From the NCBI GenBank assembly GCA_026168455.1, contig CM047426.1:78085986-78149985 (forward strand): 64,000 nt of DNA. Direction: 5' to 3'. This DNA comes from Theocolax elegans. Its lineage: Eukaryota; Arthropoda; Insecta; Hymenoptera; Cerocephalidae. Positions 456 through 12,400 of the stretch are shown one piece after another. Numbering within the stretch: the stretch's first letter is position 1; every line of letters starts with the position of its first letter. The notes under the pieces were generated by a model. That model saw only the letters and a program-made list of their open reading frames with translations. It did not search any database and was not told the DNA's origin. The position numbers were made by a program, and so were the translations under genes.

Positions 456-3400
456 CTGTAAAATGTTTATGTGAATTTTATCTATCAAAATGAAAATAGT
501 AAATTATGAAAAAACACAATTTTCATAAATATTTTAAATTATTTTTAACCTCATAGCGTGCGATACTTTAATGATACACATCATCAGTAACTTATTAAAA
601 ATTATACTGCGCAATAGCATTTAATATTCGTTTTAGAAACTGTACTCACTTCCTCAAAGTCTTGAGAGGCTCGATCTTCGGATTTTTCGTACCCGTCTCT
701 GGATTGACAGTCGTGAAAATGCAACGAGTGCATGGCTTTACATTACGAAAAACAATGTCACCGATTTTAATCCAATCCCAATTATCTTCGTCCAAAGGTT
801 CAGGTCCCTTCACAACGAAATTCGGCCTAAAATGTAAAGGTGTTACTGATTCTTCGAGTCGCGTATTTAAATCCGAGATCGACGCTTCGTTTTCCAACGT
901 GTAACTCGTGGCGTCCGGGTAAGCACCCTAATAATAAAACATTTAAAATATTTAATTTGTGATGCAATTTATACTTCAAGACATTATAAAATTAATATAT
1001 ATCTTAATTTGCGTTATCACATTCATATAAATAATGTGTATCATTGTAAATAATATACGAAAGGTGTATACGCTGTTTACGTAACATATTTTAACAACGG
1101 TACAAAATAATCTAACAATTGAGGTTGGCAATATTATTCAACTAAATTCAAAGATCCTTCGAACATACGGTACGTGTCAACTTGTTTTTATTATCATCCA
1201 TCGCATAGACACAGAAAAAAAACTGACATTTGCCAATTATCCTCGTCTAGTACTGAAAAGAACAATATCACGATCAGTCTACCATTGAGACAATGGAAAA
1301 TATTTATAGTCGTATATTATTGACTCAACTAATAAGTAATGTTAAGAAACAATTAAAGAAATTCTAAAGAAAAAAAGGATCTTGAATATACAAAACATTA
1401 TATACTAATATTACGAGGAAGGCTTGTTCAATGTAATCCTATAACTCGATGGTTGGAAGTGCGTGTACTGTGAGAAAAAATATACCCGACGTGCGAGTCT
1501 CACGATTCTACTGTTGCATGAACACTTTTACTGCCTTAATTCATCCATTGTAAAGAAATTAGTACCTTAGTGAGAAAAACTGAAATTAACAAACTTTCCT
1601 ACGCGTTACATGAAGCTTTACGTACATTTTAATTTCATATCTGTATCAAATAGCATTATCGTTACATTTTCTCGAAGAAAAACTATAGTAAAAAGTAGTA
1701 GTAATTATTTGGTCAACTTATTTACATTACTAATAAATTTATGAGAAGAACCAATTTTTTTTAATTTTTAAATACGTTTCTAACCGTGATGCTTCAGTCT
1801 ATTATAAAAAAATATATCGTTCTTTTCGAATATAATTAAATTGTTAACTTATAGTCATTAATTATTATTTTTAAAGATGTATTTAAAAAGGGTATAGAGC
1901 AATAACAGCAAGTTATTCTTATTTTTATATACAAGTAATTATAAATGTAAAAGTAATTTATAAAATGTATAGCGAAAAAAAAATTGTCACCGTTATGATT
2001 AAAAATTAATTTTCTACAATTATTTAAAAAGTACCGCTGTTTCTCTGAGAAGAACCAGAATAATAATCTCGAATGCTTGAGAAAGTTATTTTCATTTATG
2101 AGAGTATACAGTAAAAAAATGAATGTTACCGTATCCGCGGTCTCGGCCAACGGGAAGGGCTTGTTTTTTACCGCGAACATCGCGCGTCGGCTTGTCCAAT
2201 GGATAGTAAACGAGCCGTAGTCCGGTATCCTCTTGTAGAAGGAAGCGCGAAAGCCATCGTGCAACTTCCTCGCCGCAGTCGCAAGCAGGTACCGCCTGAC
2301 CCCAAACGGCTGCTCGAAATCGTCCTCGAAGTCTTGATAAGTCCACCGATACTGACATCATACCTGGTGCTTTCAGTGTCAATATCGAGCCTGCCATGCT
2401 TGGCGATACCTGTGTCGTTTATACAAATAGCAAACGTTTATAAGACAATTTCTATTTAATTTAAATTTTTTGTTATTATTTACGATATTAAATTGATTAC
2501 TTAAATAAATTAATAAAACCATATTTCTTTTAAAATAATTAATTGCTTTTACTTTTGTAGAAATGTGGTTAGTAGAAAAATCTTACTACTTATTTCTACT
2601 TTTAACTGATCAACGTATTAGAGGAATGCATCCGCGTAGAATAAATATTGTAATAGTAAAAAAAAATTTGTAAGTTTAGCAATGTTTTGAAACTCGGGGA
2701 CTCAAAATACGTAATATTTAAAGACTGTTTATACGGATATGTGTGTGAGGTAATTTTAAATCTTAGGGTTAATCAAACTGATTGGACTCTATACGGTTCA
2801 ATCGACGTATTTTGAAGCTGTTTCAAGCTGTACTACTTCACAGAAAAAAAAATTTGTTTGAATCAAAAAAATATATTTGTTTGAATTCAGTTTATTTGAT
2901 TCAAATAAATATTTTTTTGATATAAATAAAATTTAATTGAAATAATAAAACTAATTATTTGTTTTCATGCACACAATTTTATTGATTTATTATTACTTAA
3001 ATCAAATAAATTTTACTTGAATCATTAAAATATTTTTCAATTTTATTTTATTCGTTTATTTGAAATGAAAAAACCCATTTTTTTCCCATGTTTTAAAAAT
3101 ACCCAATAAAATGGTAAACATAAATCAAGCAATTAATTTATTTAGTCAATGAAAAAATTGCATTAATTTAAAAATGGATTTAACTGAAAATATTTCTTCA
3201 TATAAGTACATATTTCTTCAAAATGCTAGAATATTTGGTTAAATTTATTAAATAATTTTTTAATTTAACGAAATGAACTACATAAATTAATGTTTCTTTC
3301 ACTTATTAAATTAATGCAAATAATAAATTAATTCAAGTAAATGTTTGTTCAAAAAATTATATGGGTTGATAAAAATTTTTGATTATACTAAATAATTATT

Positions 3401-6400
3401 TTGTTAAATTAAATAAATAATTTTTTTTTTTCATAATATTATTTTTATTTCAATTGAGAAGTTTGATTTTATAAAAGCAAAAAGTAAATTATTTTAAAAG
3501 ATGAGTTTAGTATGATATAACTTTACTTGAACAATTAAGTAACATTAAAAAAATAATGTTTCTCAATTAAATAAATATTTTTTAAAGTGGATTTGCTAAA
3601 GTTAAAATTATATTTATTGTTTCAATAAAATGTATATTATTTTAACTAAATAGGAATCTTTGTTTTAAAATAATAATTTACTTAATTCAACTATATTTTT
3701 TTTTAATTCAACACTCCATTTGAGTGAAATAAATAATTAAATATTTTAATTGTAAGAAAATTTGTGTTTTTAATTTGGTATGTACTTATTACTTTAATTT
3801 TTGTAACTAAATGAATTGAAAATTATAAAACGCGTTCAGTTTTACGTTGCATTAAATAATATGTTATATTATAAAACTTATAATAATTCAGGGACCTACC
3901 TACACCGACCTCTCTAAACAGTACCCGTTATAATTGGTAATTAAAAAAAAAGTTTTGATAAAATAAATTAATTTTAAAGAAATATTTTATTAAAACAAAG
4001 AAACATACGCTTATTGAAAGAAATAAATACTTTTTTGAAGCGATGTAATAATTTATTTGTATTAAATGCATTTTTATTAGAAAAAATAAAATTCATATGA
4101 AATAAAGTAATTCTAAAGAAATGTTTTATTGAAACAAAGAAATATTAGTTTATTGAAGGAAATAAATACTTTTTTAAAGCGATGTAATAATTTATTTGTA
4201 TTAACTGCATTTTTATTAGAAAAAATAAAATCCATATGAAATAAAGTAATTTTAAAGAAATATTTTATTAAAACAAAGAAACATACGCTTATTGAAAGAA
4301 ATAAATACTTTTTTGAAGCGATGTAATAATTTATTTGTATTAAATGCATTTTTATTAGAAAAAATAAAATTCATACGAAATAAAGTAATTTTAAAGAAAT
4401 GTTTTATTGAAACAAAGAAATATTAGTTTATTGAAGGAAATAAATACTTTTTTGAAGCGATGTAATAATTTATTTGTATTAACTGCATTTTTATTAGAAA
4501 AAATAAAATTCATACGAAATAAAGTAATTTTAAAGAAATATTTTATTAAAACAAAGAAACATACGCTTATTGAAAGAAATAAATACTTTTTTGAAGCGAT
4601 GTAATAATTTATTTGTATTAACTGCATTTTTATTAGAAAAAATAAAATCCATATGAAATAAAGTAATTTTAAAGAAATGTTTTATTGAAACAAAGAAATA
4701 TTAGTTTATTGAAGGAAATAAATACTTTTTTGAAGCGATGTAATAATTTATTTGTATTAACTGCATTTTTATTAGAAAAAATAAAATTCATACGAAATAA
4801 AGTAATTTTAAAGAAATATTTTATTAAAACAAAGAAACATACGCTTATTGAAAGAAATAAATACTTTTTTGAAGCGATGTAATAATTTATTTGTATTAAC
4901 TGCATTTTTATTAGAAAAAATAAAATCCATATGAAATAAAGTAATTTTAAAGAAATATTTTATTAAAACAAAGAAACATACGCTTATTGAAAGAAATAAA
5001 TACTTTTTTGAAGCGATGTAATAATTTATTTGTATTAAATGCATTTTTATTAGAAAAAATAAAATTCATACGAAATAAAGTAATTTTAAAGAAATATTTT
5101 ATTAAAACAAAGAAACATACGCTTATTGAAAGAAATAAATACTTTTTTGAAGCGATGTAATAATTTATTTGTATTAAATGCATTTTTATTAGAAAAAATA
5201 AAATTCATACGAAATAAAGTAATTTTAAAGAAATGTTTTATTGAAACAAAGAAATATTAGTTTATTGAAGGAAATAAATACTTTTTTAAAGCGATGTAAT
5301 AATTTATTTGTATTAAATGCATTTTTATTAGAAAAAATAAAATTCATACGAAATAAAGTAATTTTAAAGAAATATTTTATTAAAACAAAGAAACATACGC
5401 TTATTGAAAGAAATAAATACTTTTTTAAAGCGATGTAATAATTTATTTGTATTAAATGCATTTTTATTAGAAAAAATAAAATCCATATGAAATAAAGTAA
5501 TTTTAAAGAAATATTTTATTAAAACAAAGAAACATACGCTTATTGAAAGAAATAAATACTTTTTTAAAGCGATGTAATAATTTATTTGTATTAACTGCAT
5601 TTTTATTAGAAAAAATAAAATTCATACGAAATAAAGTAATTTTAAAGAAATGTTTTATTGAAACAAAGAAATATTAGTTTATTGAAGGAAATAAATACTT
5701 TTTTAAAGCGATGTAATAATTTATTTGTATTAAATGCATTTTTATTAGAAAAAATAAAATTCATATGAAATAAAGTAATTTTAAAGAAATGTTTTATTGA
5801 AACAAAGAAATATTAGTTTATTGAAGGAAATAAATACTTTTTTAAAGCGATGTAATAATTTATTTGTATTAAATGCATTTTTATTAGAAAAAATAAAATT
5901 CATACGAAATAAAGTAATTTTAAAGAAATGTTTTATTGAAACAAAGAAATATTAGTTTATTGAAGGAAATAAATACTTTTTTGAAGCGATGTAATAATTT
6001 ATTTGTATTAACTGCATTTTTATTAGAAAAAATAAAATTCATACGAAATAAAGTAATTTTAAAGAAATATTTTATTAAAACAAAGAAACATACGCTTATT
6101 GAAAGAAATAAATACTTTTTTAAAGCGATGTAATAATTTATTTGTATTAAATGCATTTTTATTAGAAAAAATAAAATCCATATGAAATAAAGTAATTTTA
6201 AAGAAATATTTTATTAAAACAAAGAAACATACGCTTATTGAAAGAAATAAATACTTTTTTAAAGCGATGTAATAATTTATTTGTATTAACTGCATTTTTA
6301 TTAGAAAAAATAAAATTCATACGAAATAAAGTAATTTTAAAGAAATATTTTATTAAAACAAAGAAACATACGCTTATTGAAAGAAATAAATACTTTTTTG

Positions 6401-9400
6401 AAGCGATGTAATAATTTATTTGTATTAAATGCATTTTTATTAGAAAAAATAAAATTCATACGAAATAAAGTAATTTTAAAGAAATGTTTTATTGAAACAA
6501 AGAAATATTAGTTTATTGAAGGAAATAAATACTTTTTTAAAGCGATGTAATAATTTATTTGTATTAAATGCATTTTTATTAGAAAAAATAAAATCCATAT
6601 GAAATAAAGTAATTTTAAAGAAATATTTTATTAAAACAAAGAAACATACGCTTATTGAAAGAAATAAATACTTTTTTAAAGCGATGTAATAATTTATTTG
6701 TATTAAATGCATTTTTATTAGAAAAAATAAAATTCATATGAAATAAAGTAATTTTAAAGAAATGTTTTATTGAAACAAAGAAATATTAGTTTATTGAAGG
6801 AAATAAATACTTTTTTGAAGCGATGTAATAATTTATTTGTATTAAATGCATTTTTATTAGAAAAAATAAAATTCATACGAAATAAAGTAATTTTAAAGAA
6901 ATATTTTATTAAAACAAAAAACGTTGCGCTTGATCGCTTATAATTCCGAACAATTAAAGATGTAAATTTAAACTAAATTATAAAAGAAAGCTAAGATTAA
7001 GTAGATACGTTTAAAAAAAACAGAAGCTTAAATATCTTACTGATCAAAAGTATGGGAAAATAACAATTAGCCACAATATCGAAAATAGTTACAATTAATG
7101 TGTTTAGGCCAAAAGTTCGTCTAATTCTATTTCCCCATAATTTTGACCATGTCTCAATATCGTAAGCTTCTTGTTTCAAAGGTATCTATTATACTTAGCT
7201 CTTTTATATTAATGATATGACCACTTTAATTGTTTTCCGAGTAAGCGTTAGAAACTCAAGCTTTTTTTCGCCGAAATTTTTCATTATTTGCTTATATCTA
7301 TCGTAAGAAAGATCATTGGACACAAAAACTCCGGCATTCTTCATACTTTTATAGCAGAAACCATATACTGTTTGGTGAGGATCCGTTTCCCAGAAGGTGT
7401 GACCTCTCCTTGTTAGTTTTTGAAATGGATTTTTTGAATATTTTATTGTTCTCGTTAAAATAACTATGTTTATGAAATAGCGATTTGTAATGCACAAATT
7501 TGTTATAGAAAAGTTGTCAATGATTTAAAGAATCCCGTGGGTTTAAAATTTAATGTTGTTTTTTTTTTATATTAAATTTTTAACGGTCTGTACGAGCCAG
7601 AATATATAAATATTCCTAATCATTAGTCCATGGTGTGCTACAAATTTGCACAAAAAAAACAACAAAACAAAGCTACAAATTTTCAACTTTATCCACTAGG
7701 GGTTTTTTCTTGGTTTTGAATACATGTAAGTGATAAAGTCTTCTAAATGTATATATATACCCCATTCAATAGTATTGTTCTTGGTCTATTTCGATATAAA
7801 TTCTATATTCAATGTCTAAGGTAGATTGCCAGTCCTTACTGATGAGACCAACTGGCAATTGTGGTCGAAACATTTATTACAATTTTATCATACACTTTCT
7901 CTATATTTATATTTAAAATTATCTTAATAATAATTTTTATTTCCACATCAATTTTTAGTCTCCAGAATTAAAATATCTATACTCATCGAACTTGGTGTAG
8001 AGGCTGCAAATTTGTAGCACACCATGGACTAATGATTAGGAATATTTATATATTCTGGCTCGTACAGACCGTTAAAAATTTAATATAACATAAAATTCAC
8101 GAGCGTATTACTCTTTAAAATTAATGTTGTTTTGTTTGAAAAAATTGTAAACACTAACAAGATCAAGTACTTTTCATTGTAAAAAAAATCAAGGGTTTGT
8201 TTTCGAGTAAAAATATAAAATGTAAAAAAATAGATTTTCTTTTCATGCACGTTTTATATTATAATATTTGATTCTCTTTATCCATATTATTCTAAAAGTT
8301 AGATTTCAAAATTATCTTGAATGAGTTCTTTGGTTGGTTACATAGGTCAAATAGTTTCAAACTTAATATGAGTTTGAAATATTTTGAATCGTTTTGTCAT
8401 GTGCTCATATCTTTATTGGTTCAGAAATCCGATTTCAAGCTCATTTTGTTAATATGTTTGCGTAGCTTTCAGAGGAATATTAAAATCTTGGGTTGATATA
8501 GGTTTACTTTATTAATTTGCTATAGTTTTCGATATATATGATCATCATTTCGTACACATTTCAAATGAATTTTTTAATGTTGCGAATGTTGTGATTTGAA
8601 TTTTTTTTTATCTTATCGCACACTCTAATCACACTATAAAAAGCAGTGAGTAAACACGCATTTTACATACTAGTAGCATACAAGGAAGCTACGTGCTAAT
8701 ATCAATTAGCAACGGTTTTTACTGCGTAAAGAGAAGTGATCATTAAACACCTATAGTACTCTGCATACGCACATTATGAAAGAGACAAAGATTTTGCAAC
8801 GTATAAATTTTAATGTTTTGTTTTCTTTTTTTTATTTTTTGACGCGAATGCAACTTAAAAGTTGGCTACGAATTTAACTTTCGATTATTACTAGTAGTAT
8901 TTCGAACTTTTATTGTAATATATGAAATTGTTAAAATAAAAATTTCTATACCTAATGTAGCTTTGCTTTGCTATATACTTTCCTATTCTTATTACCATCA
9001 AAAATAGAATATTAATTTTGTTAATCGAAACAATGCAGATGTATTGTCGGAAAATACAAAGTAAAATCCGAACGTTACTTCTCATATAATCTCATAATTC
9101 AACAATCCGTAAAAACGTCCGTAGTATGTATATAAACAAAAGGAAAAGAATGACCGGATGACTGTGATTACAATGCACATCGGTCAGTTCTCTAGAGCTG
9201 TGCTAGTCGCTTACACTCTTATTTTTATTCCGATTCGTTTGAAATTCTAATCGCTCTAATTGCTAAGCCGACAAAATCTAAAATCTCGCTTGTACCGCGC
9301 TAACAACGTCTCTGCATAAATATACTAAGTCTGCATCAACGAGAGATGCCGCTTTCCTTATTTTTTAACAGTTCTGTCAAACGTTGATAATTTTAACAAT

Positions 9401-12400
9401 TATATATATAAATAATAAAATTGAGTTTTTGACGTATAAGTAATTATTGTAACAATACGTTCTCTATACATACAAGTATAATTGAGAAATTAATTATTAA
9501 TTATTACATATAAATTGTATAAAAATATATTTGTAATTGTATACTAAATAATTTTTTTAAACAAAAATATTGTATGATAGTCAGCAAATCTCAAAATTTT
9601 AGCTCATACTTATCAGATAAAACTGTTTCGAAGTCGTTTACAATTCTAATAAACGGGAATTTTAATTGTCAGATTGATAAGATCTGAGATTTAGCAGAAG
9701 ATAGGTATTGTTTCGGAAACTGTTTCACGTACTCAAGATTCTGGCTGTTCGTCTATATGAAAAGGTCATTACCTTTTTATTAGTAAATTATACATGTTTC
9801 ATGGATCTTAACTCTTGTTGAATATACATTTTACATCTTGTAGAACGAGAGAGACACTAATTAAGTGTTTTGGTGGAAATTTAAACTCGAACGGGATATT
9901 CATATATTATATAACTGTGTTTTGAGTAAGAAAATTAAACAGCTTACTATCATCATATCTGACTCCGATACAAATTTATATTACTATTAAACTTGGTTAC
10001 TTAGTATTTGCTTTTGTTTCATACATTTAATAATTTTTAGTACTGTAAATTATTTCGATGTAGTATTTTATAATCGAGTATATATATTTATGTAAAACAT
10101 GACACATTTTTGTGAAATTAAATATAACTGAATAAAAATATTGCAAATCAATAGTAAACAAACTCATAATTACCAAATAAAATTGATTCTATCAATTGAA
10201 GTACTCGCTTGAATTAAAAAAACTCTAGTGACCCTATTTATTGAATAGTAATTCGAATAGCTTTCAAACATTAAAGTATTTGTGCAATCGTAATTATTAT
10301 ATTCTGTTTTTCTTTGTAGTAAAGCAAAAATTTTCTGCTAAATTTAATTAATATGCGATTGTTTAAATGAAAGTTAGAAAGTAAAATGTACGATTATAAA
10401 TTAGGATATATCAATAAAATGCACTTTTATTAAAACTAAAAAAAGATTATTTTCTTATTATATTATTTGTAAGGGATTATCCATGTCTCCTTACAAATTA
10501 AAAAAATATTTCATTTTATATTTTTTTATACAGTACAGACAATAATCGACCAAGCAATTATCAAGGTAGACATTTTTCTTGCCAGTCATTGCACCCAAAA
10601 GATCATCGCAATATTTGACGGCTACAGTAAACATTTAAATGATAACTGAATAAATAAGACGTATATGGTATATTTGTGCCCAGGTAAACTGTTTTAGTAC
10701 AATACACTATCCCTGGTAGAAATGAGAACATTTAAAATAGATGGGATTCTAGTTACTGGGTACAAAATATGTATAGAGTTTTAATAGGTGAGAAATGGTA
10801 ATTAGTTGGATTAAAGAAATCAATGTGGAATTAGATTTGAATTAAGTCAATCCAAAATACTCAAGAAGTTTGTTTTCATTTATTTTTATTATTGATATAA
10901 GTAAGGTTGATATTGATTTTACCTCGTTATCAATACATCTCAATTAAATTTAGAAGCTTGTAAAAATAGAATTAAATCTTAGTTAATTATATTCACTCTT
11001 TCGTAATTATCAATCCAATACATATTTTTATATTCTCATAGGAAACAGACAACATAAAATTTAGAACTAATAAATTCCTTCTACTTTTAATCAAACATAA
11101 TATTCAAAAATTATAAATTCTAATTTCTTAATATGATTGGATTTAAACGTGATTTTAATACTCTCAATTTTTATAATAACTGTAAGGTTATTCACCCACC
11201 ACACAACATTTATATTTTTACTAAACATATAACAATTTTAATAATCTAAATCATCAAAATAATGTGCGTATTAATTGATTACTTCTTAGACTGTTTTTAT
11301 TGCAATAGTATATACAGTTATAAAAAATTTTTTGTATATAAAATTTGATAGTGCAGAATTTTAATTACGTATAGAATTTATACTATTAAAACAATTATTT
11401 ATAGAGAATGTAAATATATAAATAACTTGTACTTCATTGGAACATAAAAAATTTAATTAATGTATAGAGAATGATTCTTGAAAATATGGAACAGTCCTCT
11501 CTTCTAATCGTTAAATATTTCAATACTATATACTATGACCTTTCTGATAAATTGATATATGTGTATATATATAACGATAAGTATCAATTCTTGGTTAAAA
11601 TGTCGTTATACAAGTTTTCCTGTATTACGAAAAAATGATTAGATTTAAATTCAAGCTTACGTATTGTGAAATTGAATTATAAATCGGTGCATATTTCGTT
11701 GTTATGTAAGATTAAAAAAAGAATTATTATCAAAATGAAAGAATAATATTACCTGAACCATTCTAGGCAACTGCCGACCGGTAACGAATTGCCCATCCAA
11801 GTCGATAACCATTAGCGTCCGATCCCTAAGCCATCCGCATTTTAGGCCAAGTTGCGTACACTCCATTTCATTGAGCCTAATGGGTCCAAGCGACTTGACC
11901 GGGAAACAGATAAGGTCGCTTAATTCTCCAACTTTGCGCCATTTTGAAGGTGGCCGATGACGTTGACGTCTGGTCCACCACCACCAGACAAAAAATACCG
12001 CGGTACCGGTACCAACCACTGCCGCGCTTACGTACGCCAATCTCGTTCGATCTACAATACAAAAATGAATAGTTTTTTTTACATTATACAATAAATATTT
12101 TAATATAAACAACAGCTTATCAGTCAAATATCTGTTTATATTTCAATATACTAAGAAATATATTATATTAAAAATTAATATAGTATTCGTACATCGCGAG
12201 AAAAGAAAGTTGTAATTTTCTATATATTCTTCTCTGGGTAGCAAAATTGACGAATAGTTGCATAAAAATTAATACATGTCTATTATTAAACTGTACTACA
12301 TAAACAAGTACCTTTTTGTAATGTAACAGTATATACCTCCATTACTAAACACTTCACTAATTTTTTAAACATTTTCCTCGGCGTAATTTTTGTTTAGTGT

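What the first reader, a model, noticed from the sequence alone, without database searches (positions are those of the whole stretch)
7811..7874. Complete hammerhead ribozyme inside an inverted-repeat element in a mARC intron
The plus strand shows GTC cleavage triplet, stem I TAAGG/CCTTA, core CTGATGA, stem II GACC/GGTC, core GAAA and a 5-bp stem III, with no core mismatch. The open end is in stem III (type III). From general knowledge, type III is typical of plant satellite RNAs and retrozymes, whereas animal retroelement hammerheads are mostly type I, so a type III copy in an insect would be unusual. It points to self-cleaving transcripts, possibly circular or multimeric, from a small non-autonomous element.
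Basis: partly seen in the sequence, partly recalled or inferred. Interest (0 to 1): 0.92.

Follow-up and report, generated by a model that had tools for sequence, protein, structure and literature searches.

The report
Self-cutting circular-RNA parasite in a wasp
A wasp intron holds one of many near-identical copies of a small genetic parasite that carries a self-cutting hammerhead ribozyme, and the copies look as if circular RNA was copied into DNA from both ends of a cut in the genome, in the way Penelope-type jumping genes insert.

Summary
The hammerhead is real. All core bases are present at 7811-7874 (+), and loops I and II hold 9-nt complements. Rfam RF00008 gives 38.3 bits, E 4.5e-7 on 281 nt, below the curated 48.5. 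The host is most likely a chalcid wasp near Nasonia; the ribozyme lies antisense in a mARC intron. The "inverted repeat" is not a DNA-transposon end: the 658-Mb genome holds many copies of a ~495-nt unit, and 24 fetched loci show tandem, 5'-truncated or head-to-head insertions, the head-to-head ones with direct flank duplications. 43 of 48 full-length ribozyme copies keep the core. Opposite arms of one insertion share private variants (0 of 2000 permutations), so one RNA templated both. Outer ends use two sites 32 nt apart, one per arm in 12 of 13 head-to-head insertions with both ends assigned (one end assigned by hand). That is the published "tail" signature of Penelope-like elements, and a Penelope family of this genome shows it too. 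Best reading: a type III hammerhead retrozyme mobilised as circular RNA by Penelope machinery. Cleavage, circles and the partner element are not shown.

The parts
7811..7874 (+). type III hammerhead ribozyme, predicted cut after 7816
   Evidence: sequence; RF00008 38.3 bits, E 4.5e-7 on 281 nt; descriptor
7825..7833 (+). loop I half of the loop-loop helix, ATTGCCAGT
   Evidence: perfect complement of 7851-7859
7851..7859 (+). loop II half of the loop-loop helix, ACTGGCAAT
   Evidence: 17 of 200000 shuffles reach 9 nt
7680..8120 (+). sense arm: unit position 358, through the cut site 494/1, to 303 (site B)
   Evidence: 99.3% to a tandem unit of another locus
7567..7650 (-). inverted arm: unit 271 (site A, outer end) to 188 (inner end)
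7651..7679 (.). junction filler between the arms; 7652-7664 is the exact reverse complement of 7554-7566 at the target junction
   Evidence: (I13)
8089..8120 (+). 32-nt 'tail' between sites A and B, present on the sense arm only
7550..7566 (+). left target-site duplication TTAATGTTGTTTTTTTT
8121..8137 (+). right target-site duplication TTAATGTTGTTTTGTTT (1 mismatch)
11702..12142 (-). open frame with an upstream mARC exon (MOSC_N)
   Evidence: PF03476; host assignment
2095..2418 (-). open frame with the next mARC exon found; the element lies in the intron between
   Evidence: PF03476

Best explanation
The feature is one genomic copy of a non-autonomous retroelement (a retrozyme) of about 495 nt with a type III hammerhead, in what is most likely a chalcid wasp. 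Transcripts self-cleave at the hammerhead (inferred) and are closed into circles (inferred). A Penelope-like reverse transcriptase/endonuclease (inferred) cuts both strands of an AT-rich target about 11-17 nt apart. The two DNA 3' ends prime DNA synthesis on the same RNA, one at site A (unit 271) and the other at site B (unit 303), and the enzyme may run round the circle several times. The two cDNAs are then joined head to head by microhomology or short filler. The duplications, the two start sites, the two arms and their common template are what the copies show; the enzyme identity, cleavage and circularity are inferred.
For: Genome: 47 matches at 97-100% identity with 40 scored of 455 candidates, several at ~494-bp spacing. 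In 24 fetched loci: 43 arms, 35 crossing the cut site, 18 longer than one unit (to 2468 nt), no 5' end at the cut (nearest unit 10). Flank duplications: 13 of 13 head-to-head insertions exceed the 95th percentile of 156 mismatched flank pairs, 8 of 13 exceed their maximum. Opposite arms share minority bases at 5.76/kb against 0.09/kb between loci; 0 of 2000 permutations; in L057 six units, three per orientation, share four near-private variants. Outer ends: 16 of 43 at 270-280 and 23 of 43 at 303-311; 12 of 13 head-to-head insertions with both ends assigned have one A and one B end (L047's left end taken from the alignment, the script had called it A). Penelope: RT starts at two adjacent internal RNA sites, the 30-40 bp between them being the optional tail, and both strands are cut and extended (PMC11167929, main text read); typical Penelope inserts carry an inverted pLTR and a 31-bp tail optionally on one of the inverted pLTRs (PMC3846280, passages). 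In this genome a Penelope family with an 828-aa RT + GIY-YIG frame stops at ruler positions 716, 718, 746 and 747 in the 4 outer ends seen, and one head-to-head array has a flank duplication. A diverged relative of the hammerhead keeps loop complementarity with two double changes, plus one in stem II.
Against: No cleavage, circRNA or expression data. No convincing sequence similarity between the unit and the Penelope sequences fetched, so the partner is not identified. L054 is a B/B exception (with inverted flanks); by the script alone L047 too would be homotypic, giving 11 of 13. L040 and L045 lack an A or B end on one side, and no duplication was found for them. Of 9 one-armed insertions, 3 of the 7 scored pass, and the other 2 (L041, L051) score under 1. 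Five of the 13 head-to-head duplication scores lie below the largest mismatched score of 8.6. Units of L045 and L048 are mixed; L037 shares no variant between arms and L052 only one of nine. A linear multimeric RNA, or gene conversion between arms, could mimic parts of this. PMC11167929 reports that HHR mutants of its Penelope still insert in vitro, and that start sites did not differ between strands. The 24 loci are the best-scoring ones, not a random sample. The second hammerhead has a weak stem III (2 pairs next to the core, then a mismatch).
Confidence: 0.74

Rival explanations
1. The element is a retrozyme but is mobilised by a LINE (L1-like twin priming), not by a Penelope-like element.
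For: Twin priming gives 5'-inverted insertions with 10-20 nt duplications and AT-rich targets (recalled, general knowledge); the duplications here are 11-17 nt apart from L054, while the Penelope examples in the passages of PMC3846280 are 8-10 bp and the wasp Penelope array has 9-13 nt.
Against: Internal priming sites in twin priming vary (recalled), whereas here both outer ends use two sites 32 nt apart, one per arm in 12 of 13. [quoted passage not shown] I did not look for LINEs in this genome.
Confidence: 0.14
2. Satellite or segmental duplication and inversion of DNA, without an RNA stage; the ribozyme is a passenger.
For: Tandem and inverted arrangements can arise by DNA rearrangement; L043 carries a ~1.28-kb tandem duplication that includes one arm end, L051 repeats one arm with its flank, and L054 has inverted flanks.
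Against: Dispersed loci with their own flank duplications, fixed outer ends with variable inner ends, 5' truncation, and persistence of the core.
Confidence: 0.04
3. A MITE-like DNA transposon with terminal inverted repeats that happens to contain a hammerhead.
For: 91-nt arms at 98% identity.
Against: Other copies have no such inverted repeats, or arms of other lengths and phases of a tandem unit; the duplications lie outside unequal ends A and B.
Confidence: 0.01
4. The sequence derives from an infectious viroid-like or HDV-like RNA captured by Penelope enzymes rather than from a resident genomic parasite.
For: Type III hammerheads with GCCR/YGGC loop pairing occur in termite and toad HDV-like RNAs (PMC7936874); this one has GCCA/TGGC.
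Against: No open frame of 100 aa or more in the window copy; no opposite-strand hammerhead with at least 4 complementary loop bases in the 24 loci (weaker ones would be missed); high copy number points to a genomic parasite.
Confidence: 0.06
5. An intronic regulatory ribozyme acting on mARC mRNA.
For: It lies in a mARC intron.
Against: It is antisense to mARC, so the pre-mRNA does not contain it, and the copy is one of many.
Confidence: 0.01

Closest known systems
Metazoan non-LTR retrozymes (Cervera and de la Pena 2020, PMC7229834; passages read)
   Same: Short low-GC repeats with a hammerhead, tandem multimers, no coding capacity, duplications longer than 4 bp, proposed circRNA template; PLEs proposed there as a strong candidate machinery.
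   Different: Those carry type I hammerheads and give ~170-400 nt RNAs. Here type III, ~495 nt, head-to-head insertions with two fixed start sites. The words 'inverted' and 'priming' do not occur in that paper's main text.
Penelope-like elements (PMC11167929 main text; PMC3846280 passages)
   Same: Head-to-head insertions, tandem copies, two adjacent RT start sites giving a ~30-nt tail on one end, AT-rich targets, hammerhead present.
   Different: The unit has no RT/endonuclease frame; its hammerhead is type III with both loops, not the minimal type I of PLEs.
Type III hammerheads of termite/toad HDV-like RNAs and of termite and dipteran genomes (PMC7936874; passages and discussion)
   Same: 5-bp stem I and a GCCR/YGGC loop-loop helix.
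   Different: Here loop I has no extra hairpin, stem II is 4-5 bp instead of 6, the loop complement is 9 nt, and the host is a hymenopteran.
Hammerheads with loop I-stem II pseudoknots (PMC3088659; passages)
   Same: Watson-Crick loop-loop helix; that paper infers one in about 40% of its hammerheads, so the helix as such is not new.
   Different: The examples in the passages I saw have 5-6 pairs; here up to 9 can be drawn.
Plant LTR retrozymes (PMC4918200; passages)
   Same: Type III hammerhead, non-autonomous, proposed circRNA intermediate.
   Different: Those have LTRs, PBS, PPT and 4-bp duplications (as described in PMC7229834); I saw no LTR arrangement here and did not search for PBS or PPT.
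Twin priming of LINE-1 (recalled, no paper read)
   Same: Two target 3' ends primed on one RNA, giving inverted structures.
   Different: Start sites are fixed here, and the template was apparently read more than once round.

Membership tests
Hammerhead ribozyme type III (RF00008) | Core CUGANGA...GAAA, RUH cleavage triplet, three stems, open stem III | tested here: met
Hammerhead ribozyme type III (RF00008) | Score above the Rfam curated cut-off | tested here: not met
   38.3 against 48.5 bits, E 4.5e-7 on 281 nt; not listed. This is a score threshold, not an anatomical feature.
Hammerhead ribozyme type III (RF00008) | Loop I-loop II tertiary contact | tested here: met
   9-nt complement; a diverged relative keeps 8 nt with two double changes. 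Sequence evidence only.
Hammerhead ribozyme type III (RF00008) | Self-cleavage | not testable with these tools
   needs transcription in Mg2+
Retrozyme | Non-autonomous repeat with a hammerhead in each unit | tested here: met
Retrozyme | Tandem copies longer than one unit | tested here: met
   18 of 43 arms exceed one unit
Retrozyme | Circular RNA made by ribozyme cleavage and ligation | not testable with these tools
   indirect support only
Metazoan retrozyme as described so far | Type I hammerhead | tested here: not met
   open end is in stem III
Penelope-like element | Frame with reverse transcriptase and GIY-YIG endonuclease | tested here: not met
   no frame of 100 aa or more overlaps 7567-8120; the element may work like a PLE but is not one
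Penelope-like element | Two RT start sites ~30 nt apart, tail on one end | tested here: met
   A 271 / B 303, one of each in 12 of 13 head-to-head insertions with both ends assigned
Deltavirus-like agent | Ribozymes on both polarities and a delta antigen frame | tested here: not met
   no frame of 100 aa in the window copy; no opposite-strand hammerhead with 4 or more complementary loop bases
MITE (TIR DNA transposon) | Same terminal inverted repeats in every copy | tested here: not met

The most novel reading that the evidence does not exclude
Animal retrozymes with type III hammerheads exist in Hymenoptera and insert when a Penelope-type enzyme, possibly a dimer on one RNA circle, cuts both target strands and uses the two DNA ends as primers at two fixed, different sites of the same circle, each strand being copied by rolling-circle reverse transcription. 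The genome scars would then show how the Penelope tail arises: one start site per strand.
Probability: 0.55. Interest if true: 0.87.

Novelty: new variant of a known kind. Interest (0 to 1): 0.8.

Why it matters
How animal retrozymes reach the genome is an open question: a 2020 review states that their repeats show no motif that would reveal the autonomous partner (PMC7761336, passage), and PLEs were proposed because they share type I hammerheads, tandem copies and co-occurrence (PMC7229834; a derivation from PLEs is proposed in PMC11722881). The insertions here carry the two-site tail of PLEs, and private variants indicate that one RNA templated both arms. That makes the partner question directly testable, offers in vivo footprints for the two-start-site behaviour seen in vitro, and extends type III hammerheads to a many-copy family in a wasp. 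I found no report of a type III hammerhead in Hymenoptera or of PLE-tail ends on a retrozyme in the 10 searches made. The library holds open-licence papers only; of the 14 papers that hold both 'retrozyme' and 'Penelope' I read passages of 6 and saw 8 as a listing.

Tried and rejected
MITE/TIR reading: rejected, because copies differ in arm length and unit phase. mARC regulation: rejected by orientation. Relatives in viral contigs: the two arm patterns gave 0 and 1 hits, the latter a 19-mer in a contig with no further similarity; the hammerhead pattern gave 5 contigs, 3 of which look to me like type I phage hammerheads, unrelated. Partner search: 6 stretches downstream of GIY-YIG hits (not each checked for a Penelope frame, and L068 is the family already seen) gave no convincing similarity to the unit (longest 45 nt, 73%, E 0.002). 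Hairpin competition: the same pairs occur in the active fold, so it is not counted as evidence against. Folding of the whole unit is little better than shuffles (z -0.97, 18 of 100 as good). A genome-wide RF00008 census and a census of the second hammerhead did not complete. My script assigned the L047 left end to A; I counted it as B from the alignment end, where the B motif carries changes; without that the count is 11 of 13, and one search used the hand-set end.

Dropped before counts: 2 partial hammerheads (and its pattern checks the core, not stem pairing: two L051 copies have a stem I mismatch, two L045 copies a wobble in stem II), one 36-nt hit of L055 at 77%, 3 of 91 pieces under 60 nt after trimming; one search leaves out L040 and L045, and L041 and L051 among the one-armed. 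The 43 arms include repeated arms of L043 and L051 that are parts of local duplications. The 13 loci permuted are not the 13 of the end count: L045 is in, L055 out. The 5 core-changed copies are 3 with ATC for GTC, 1 GAAAT, 1 deletion in CTGATGA; tandem copies of one locus are not independent.
Full report
WHAT IS THERE. The window (GC about 30%) carries a mARC gene on the minus strand: frames with MOSC_N at 11702-12142 and 2095-2418 and with MOSC at 649-927. The host is therefore most likely a chalcid wasp close to, but not, Nasonia. The hammerhead at 7811-7874 lies in the intron between the first two exon frames, on the plus strand, antisense to mARC.

THE RIBOZYME. All core positions are present: GTC, CTGATGA, GAAA, stem I 5 bp, stem II 4-5 bp, stem III 5 bp, open at stem III. 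A strict descriptor finds it alone on both strands of the window; 300 Markov-1 sequences of 64 kb gave one full match. Rfam RF00008 scores it 38.3 bits (E 4.5e-7 over 281 nt), under the curated 48.5; the two 64-kb scans did not list it. Such loop pseudoknots are known from about 40% of hammerheads (PMC3088659, passage). Energy folding of the isolated segment prefers a hairpin of those same pairs (the nested hammerhead alone scores -6.7 to -7.8 against -15.2 kcal/mol); the software cannot form loop-loop helices. A diverged relative in locus L043 (positions 3146 and 4421, two copies of one duplicated stretch; RF00008 26.1 bits, E 0.0012 on 251 nt) pairs its loops as ATCTCCAG/CTGGAGAT (307 of 200000 shuffles reach 8). 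Relative to the window copy this is two double changes in the loop helix (T-A to C-G, G-C to T-A) and one in stem II (GACC/GGTC to GTCC/GGAC). That is covariation between two sequences, not a statistical survey, and the relative's stem III is weak.

THE ELEMENT. A 261-nt query found 47 matches of 97-100% identity in the 658-Mb genome, with 40 scored of 455 first-look candidates. I fetched 24 loci covering the 23 groups of matches (L007; one group was cut into two loci). Using one tandem unit of locus L022 as a ruler (494 nt; that copy has a one-base deletion in its core, so intact units are ~495), with position 1 just after the predicted cut, the insertions resolve as follows. Most are either one arm or two arms placed head to head; L045 is more broken up. 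Inner ends are scattered over the unit; outer ends are not. Of 43 arms, 35 run across the cut site and 18 are longer than a unit, up to 2468 nt. No arm begins at the cut site, the nearest at unit 10. So the template was a multimer or a circle, not a cut linear monomer. In the window: minus arm 7567-7650 (unit 271 to 188), filler 7651-7679, plus arm 7680-8120 (unit 358, through 494/1, to 303), flanked by TTAATGTTGTTTT(T/G)TTT at 7550-7566 and 8121-8137. Part of the filler is an inverted copy of the left target junction (I13). Of 48 full-length hammerhead copies in these loci 43 keep the core pattern.

TARGET DUPLICATIONS. For 13 head-to-head insertions with both ends assigned, the score of the best direct repeat at the two flanks (ends allowed to shift by 4) averages 10.35, against 1.54 in 156 mismatched pairs of left and right flanks; all 13 exceed the 95th percentile (5.8) and 8 exceed the maximum (8.6) of the mismatched pairs. 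Apart from L054 (8 nt) they are 11-17 nt. Of 7 one-armed insertions scored there, 3 exceed their own threshold; two more, L041 and L051, score under 1. Flanks are 81% A+T.

ONE RNA PER INSERTION. Pieces of different loci differ at 13.07 per kb and share minority bases at 0.09 per kb. Pieces in opposite arms of one insertion differ at 4.56 per kb and share minority bases at 5.76 per kb; when minus and plus arms of the 13 loci that enter this test are shuffled among loci, 0 of 2000 permutations reach the observed sharing and 2 of 2000 reach the observed low difference. In L057 six units, three in each orientation, share four variants that are found in at most one piece elsewhere (58T>C, 84C>T, 89T>A, 101A>G). 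L039, L047, L050 and L053 share variants between arms. Not all loci fit: L037 shares none, L052 one of nine, and L045 and L048 are mixed (in L048 four minus units share variants that the fifth and the plus unit lack), so more than one template, copying errors or later change is needed there. Gene conversion between arms after insertion could raise sharing too, but would not by itself explain multi-lap arms with flank duplications.

TWO FIXED OUTER ENDS. I read the outer ends as sitting after ...AAATTTAATATAA (A, unit 271) or after ...ATTACTCTTTAAAA (B, unit 303), and alignment ends a few bases beyond as target bases that match by chance. Of 43 arms, 16 stop at 270-280 and 23 at 303-311; the other 4 belong to L040 and L045. 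In 12 of 13 head-to-head insertions with both ends assigned, one arm ends at A and the other at B (L037, L038, L039, L043, L047, L048, L050, L052, L053, L055, L057, L058); L047's left end is taken from the alignment, as the motif script called it A. The exception, L054, is B/B and has inverted flanks, so it may be a rearranged locus. With equal odds, 12 or more of 13 has a probability of about 0.002 (own arithmetic). Predicted folding places A inside the region closed by a GCUCGU/ACGAGC stem and B 16 nt beyond that stem (z -1.96); this is a prediction only.

COMPARISON WITH PENELOPE. PMC11167929 (abstract and main text read) reports that the purified Anolis PLE cuts and extends both strands, starts at two adjacent internal RNA sites, and that the 30-40 bp between them is the optional tail of genomic copies; start sites did not differ between strands in vitro, and hammerhead mutants still inserted. 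PMC3846280 (passages) describes the typical insert with an inverted pLTR, 8-10 bp duplications and a 31-bp tail optionally at one of the inverted pLTRs, and reads the inverted structures as self-priming on an antisense template. In this wasp genome GIY-YIG hits are numerous (98 matches, 150 scored of 1713 candidates). One family has an 828-aa open frame with RVT_1 and GIY-YIG, a hammerhead-like core between the end of one frame and the start of the next copy's frame and a 2888-bp tandem spacing (coordinates). Of a head-to-head array at C2:55.23 Mb I fetched three stretches, not the whole: it ends at ruler positions 718 on the left and 746 on the right with CGGATTTCA(AATT) repeated at both flanks; in two further copies the match to the ruler stops at 716 and 747. 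So a Penelope family of the same genome shows the same anatomy with a tail of about 28 nt. Its sequence is not similar to the unit (69 of 300 shuffles score as high), and 6 further stretches downstream of GIY-YIG hits gave no convincing similarity. The partner family is thus not identified.

MECHANISM AND ITS STATUS. Shown by the copies: multi-lap arms, mostly one template per insertion, two-ended insertions with flank duplications, two start sites. Inferred: self-cleavage, ligation into circles, a Penelope-type enzyme, one start site per target strand, head-to-head joining by microhomology or filler. The A/B pairing within insertions is, as far as I saw in the papers read, not stated for PLEs; the 'one of the inverted pLTRs' wording in PMC3846280 is consistent with it.

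NOVELTY. Retrozymes, type III hammerheads in insects (termites, dipterans) and the PLE-retrozyme proposal are known (PMC7936874, PMC7229834, PMC7761336, PMC11722881; passages). Not found in print in ten searches: a type III hammerhead in Hymenoptera, an animal retrozyme with a type III hammerhead, or retrozyme ends bearing the PLE tail. I class it as a new variant of a known kind.

Noticed in passing
window 3961-6922: A 139-bp satellite, 21.3 copies at 95% matches, lies in the same mARC intron about 640 bp from the element; whether it is linked is unknown.
   Followed up: no
L043 3146-3205 and 4421-4480: A second, diverged type III hammerhead with its own complementary loops, downstream of a TATA-like stretch; the ~1.28-kb region is tandemly duplicated together with one retrozyme arm end.
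   Followed up: partly
L054 2614-3477 and flanks: The only B/B insertion; its flanks are inverted copies of each other for at least 30 nt, as if the locus were part of a larger palindrome.
   Followed up: no
window 7651-7664: Junction filler contains a 13-nt inverted copy of the target junction (7554-7566), suggesting that a growing cDNA end switched to copy the target DNA.
   Followed up: partly
L060-L063, L068: A Penelope family in the wasp genome (828-aa open frame in L060) with a head-to-head array, ends at two sites 28-31 nt apart and a hammerhead-like core.
   Followed up: partly
L002, L003, L005 (viral contigs): Conserved sequence with CTGATGAG...CGAAACC...GGCGGTCTAGG that looks like a type I hammerhead in uncultivated viral contigs.
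   Followed up: no
window 7204-7524 (-): An open frame of 106 aa next to the element, no Pfam match.
   Followed up: no
L045 4074-7102: A multi-unit array in which units with GTC and ATC cleavage triplets are mixed, pointing to mixed templates or recombination.
   Followed up: no
L051 2290-3579: Two arms with identical left flanks, 194 bp apart, as if one arm and its flank had been duplicated locally.
   Followed up: no
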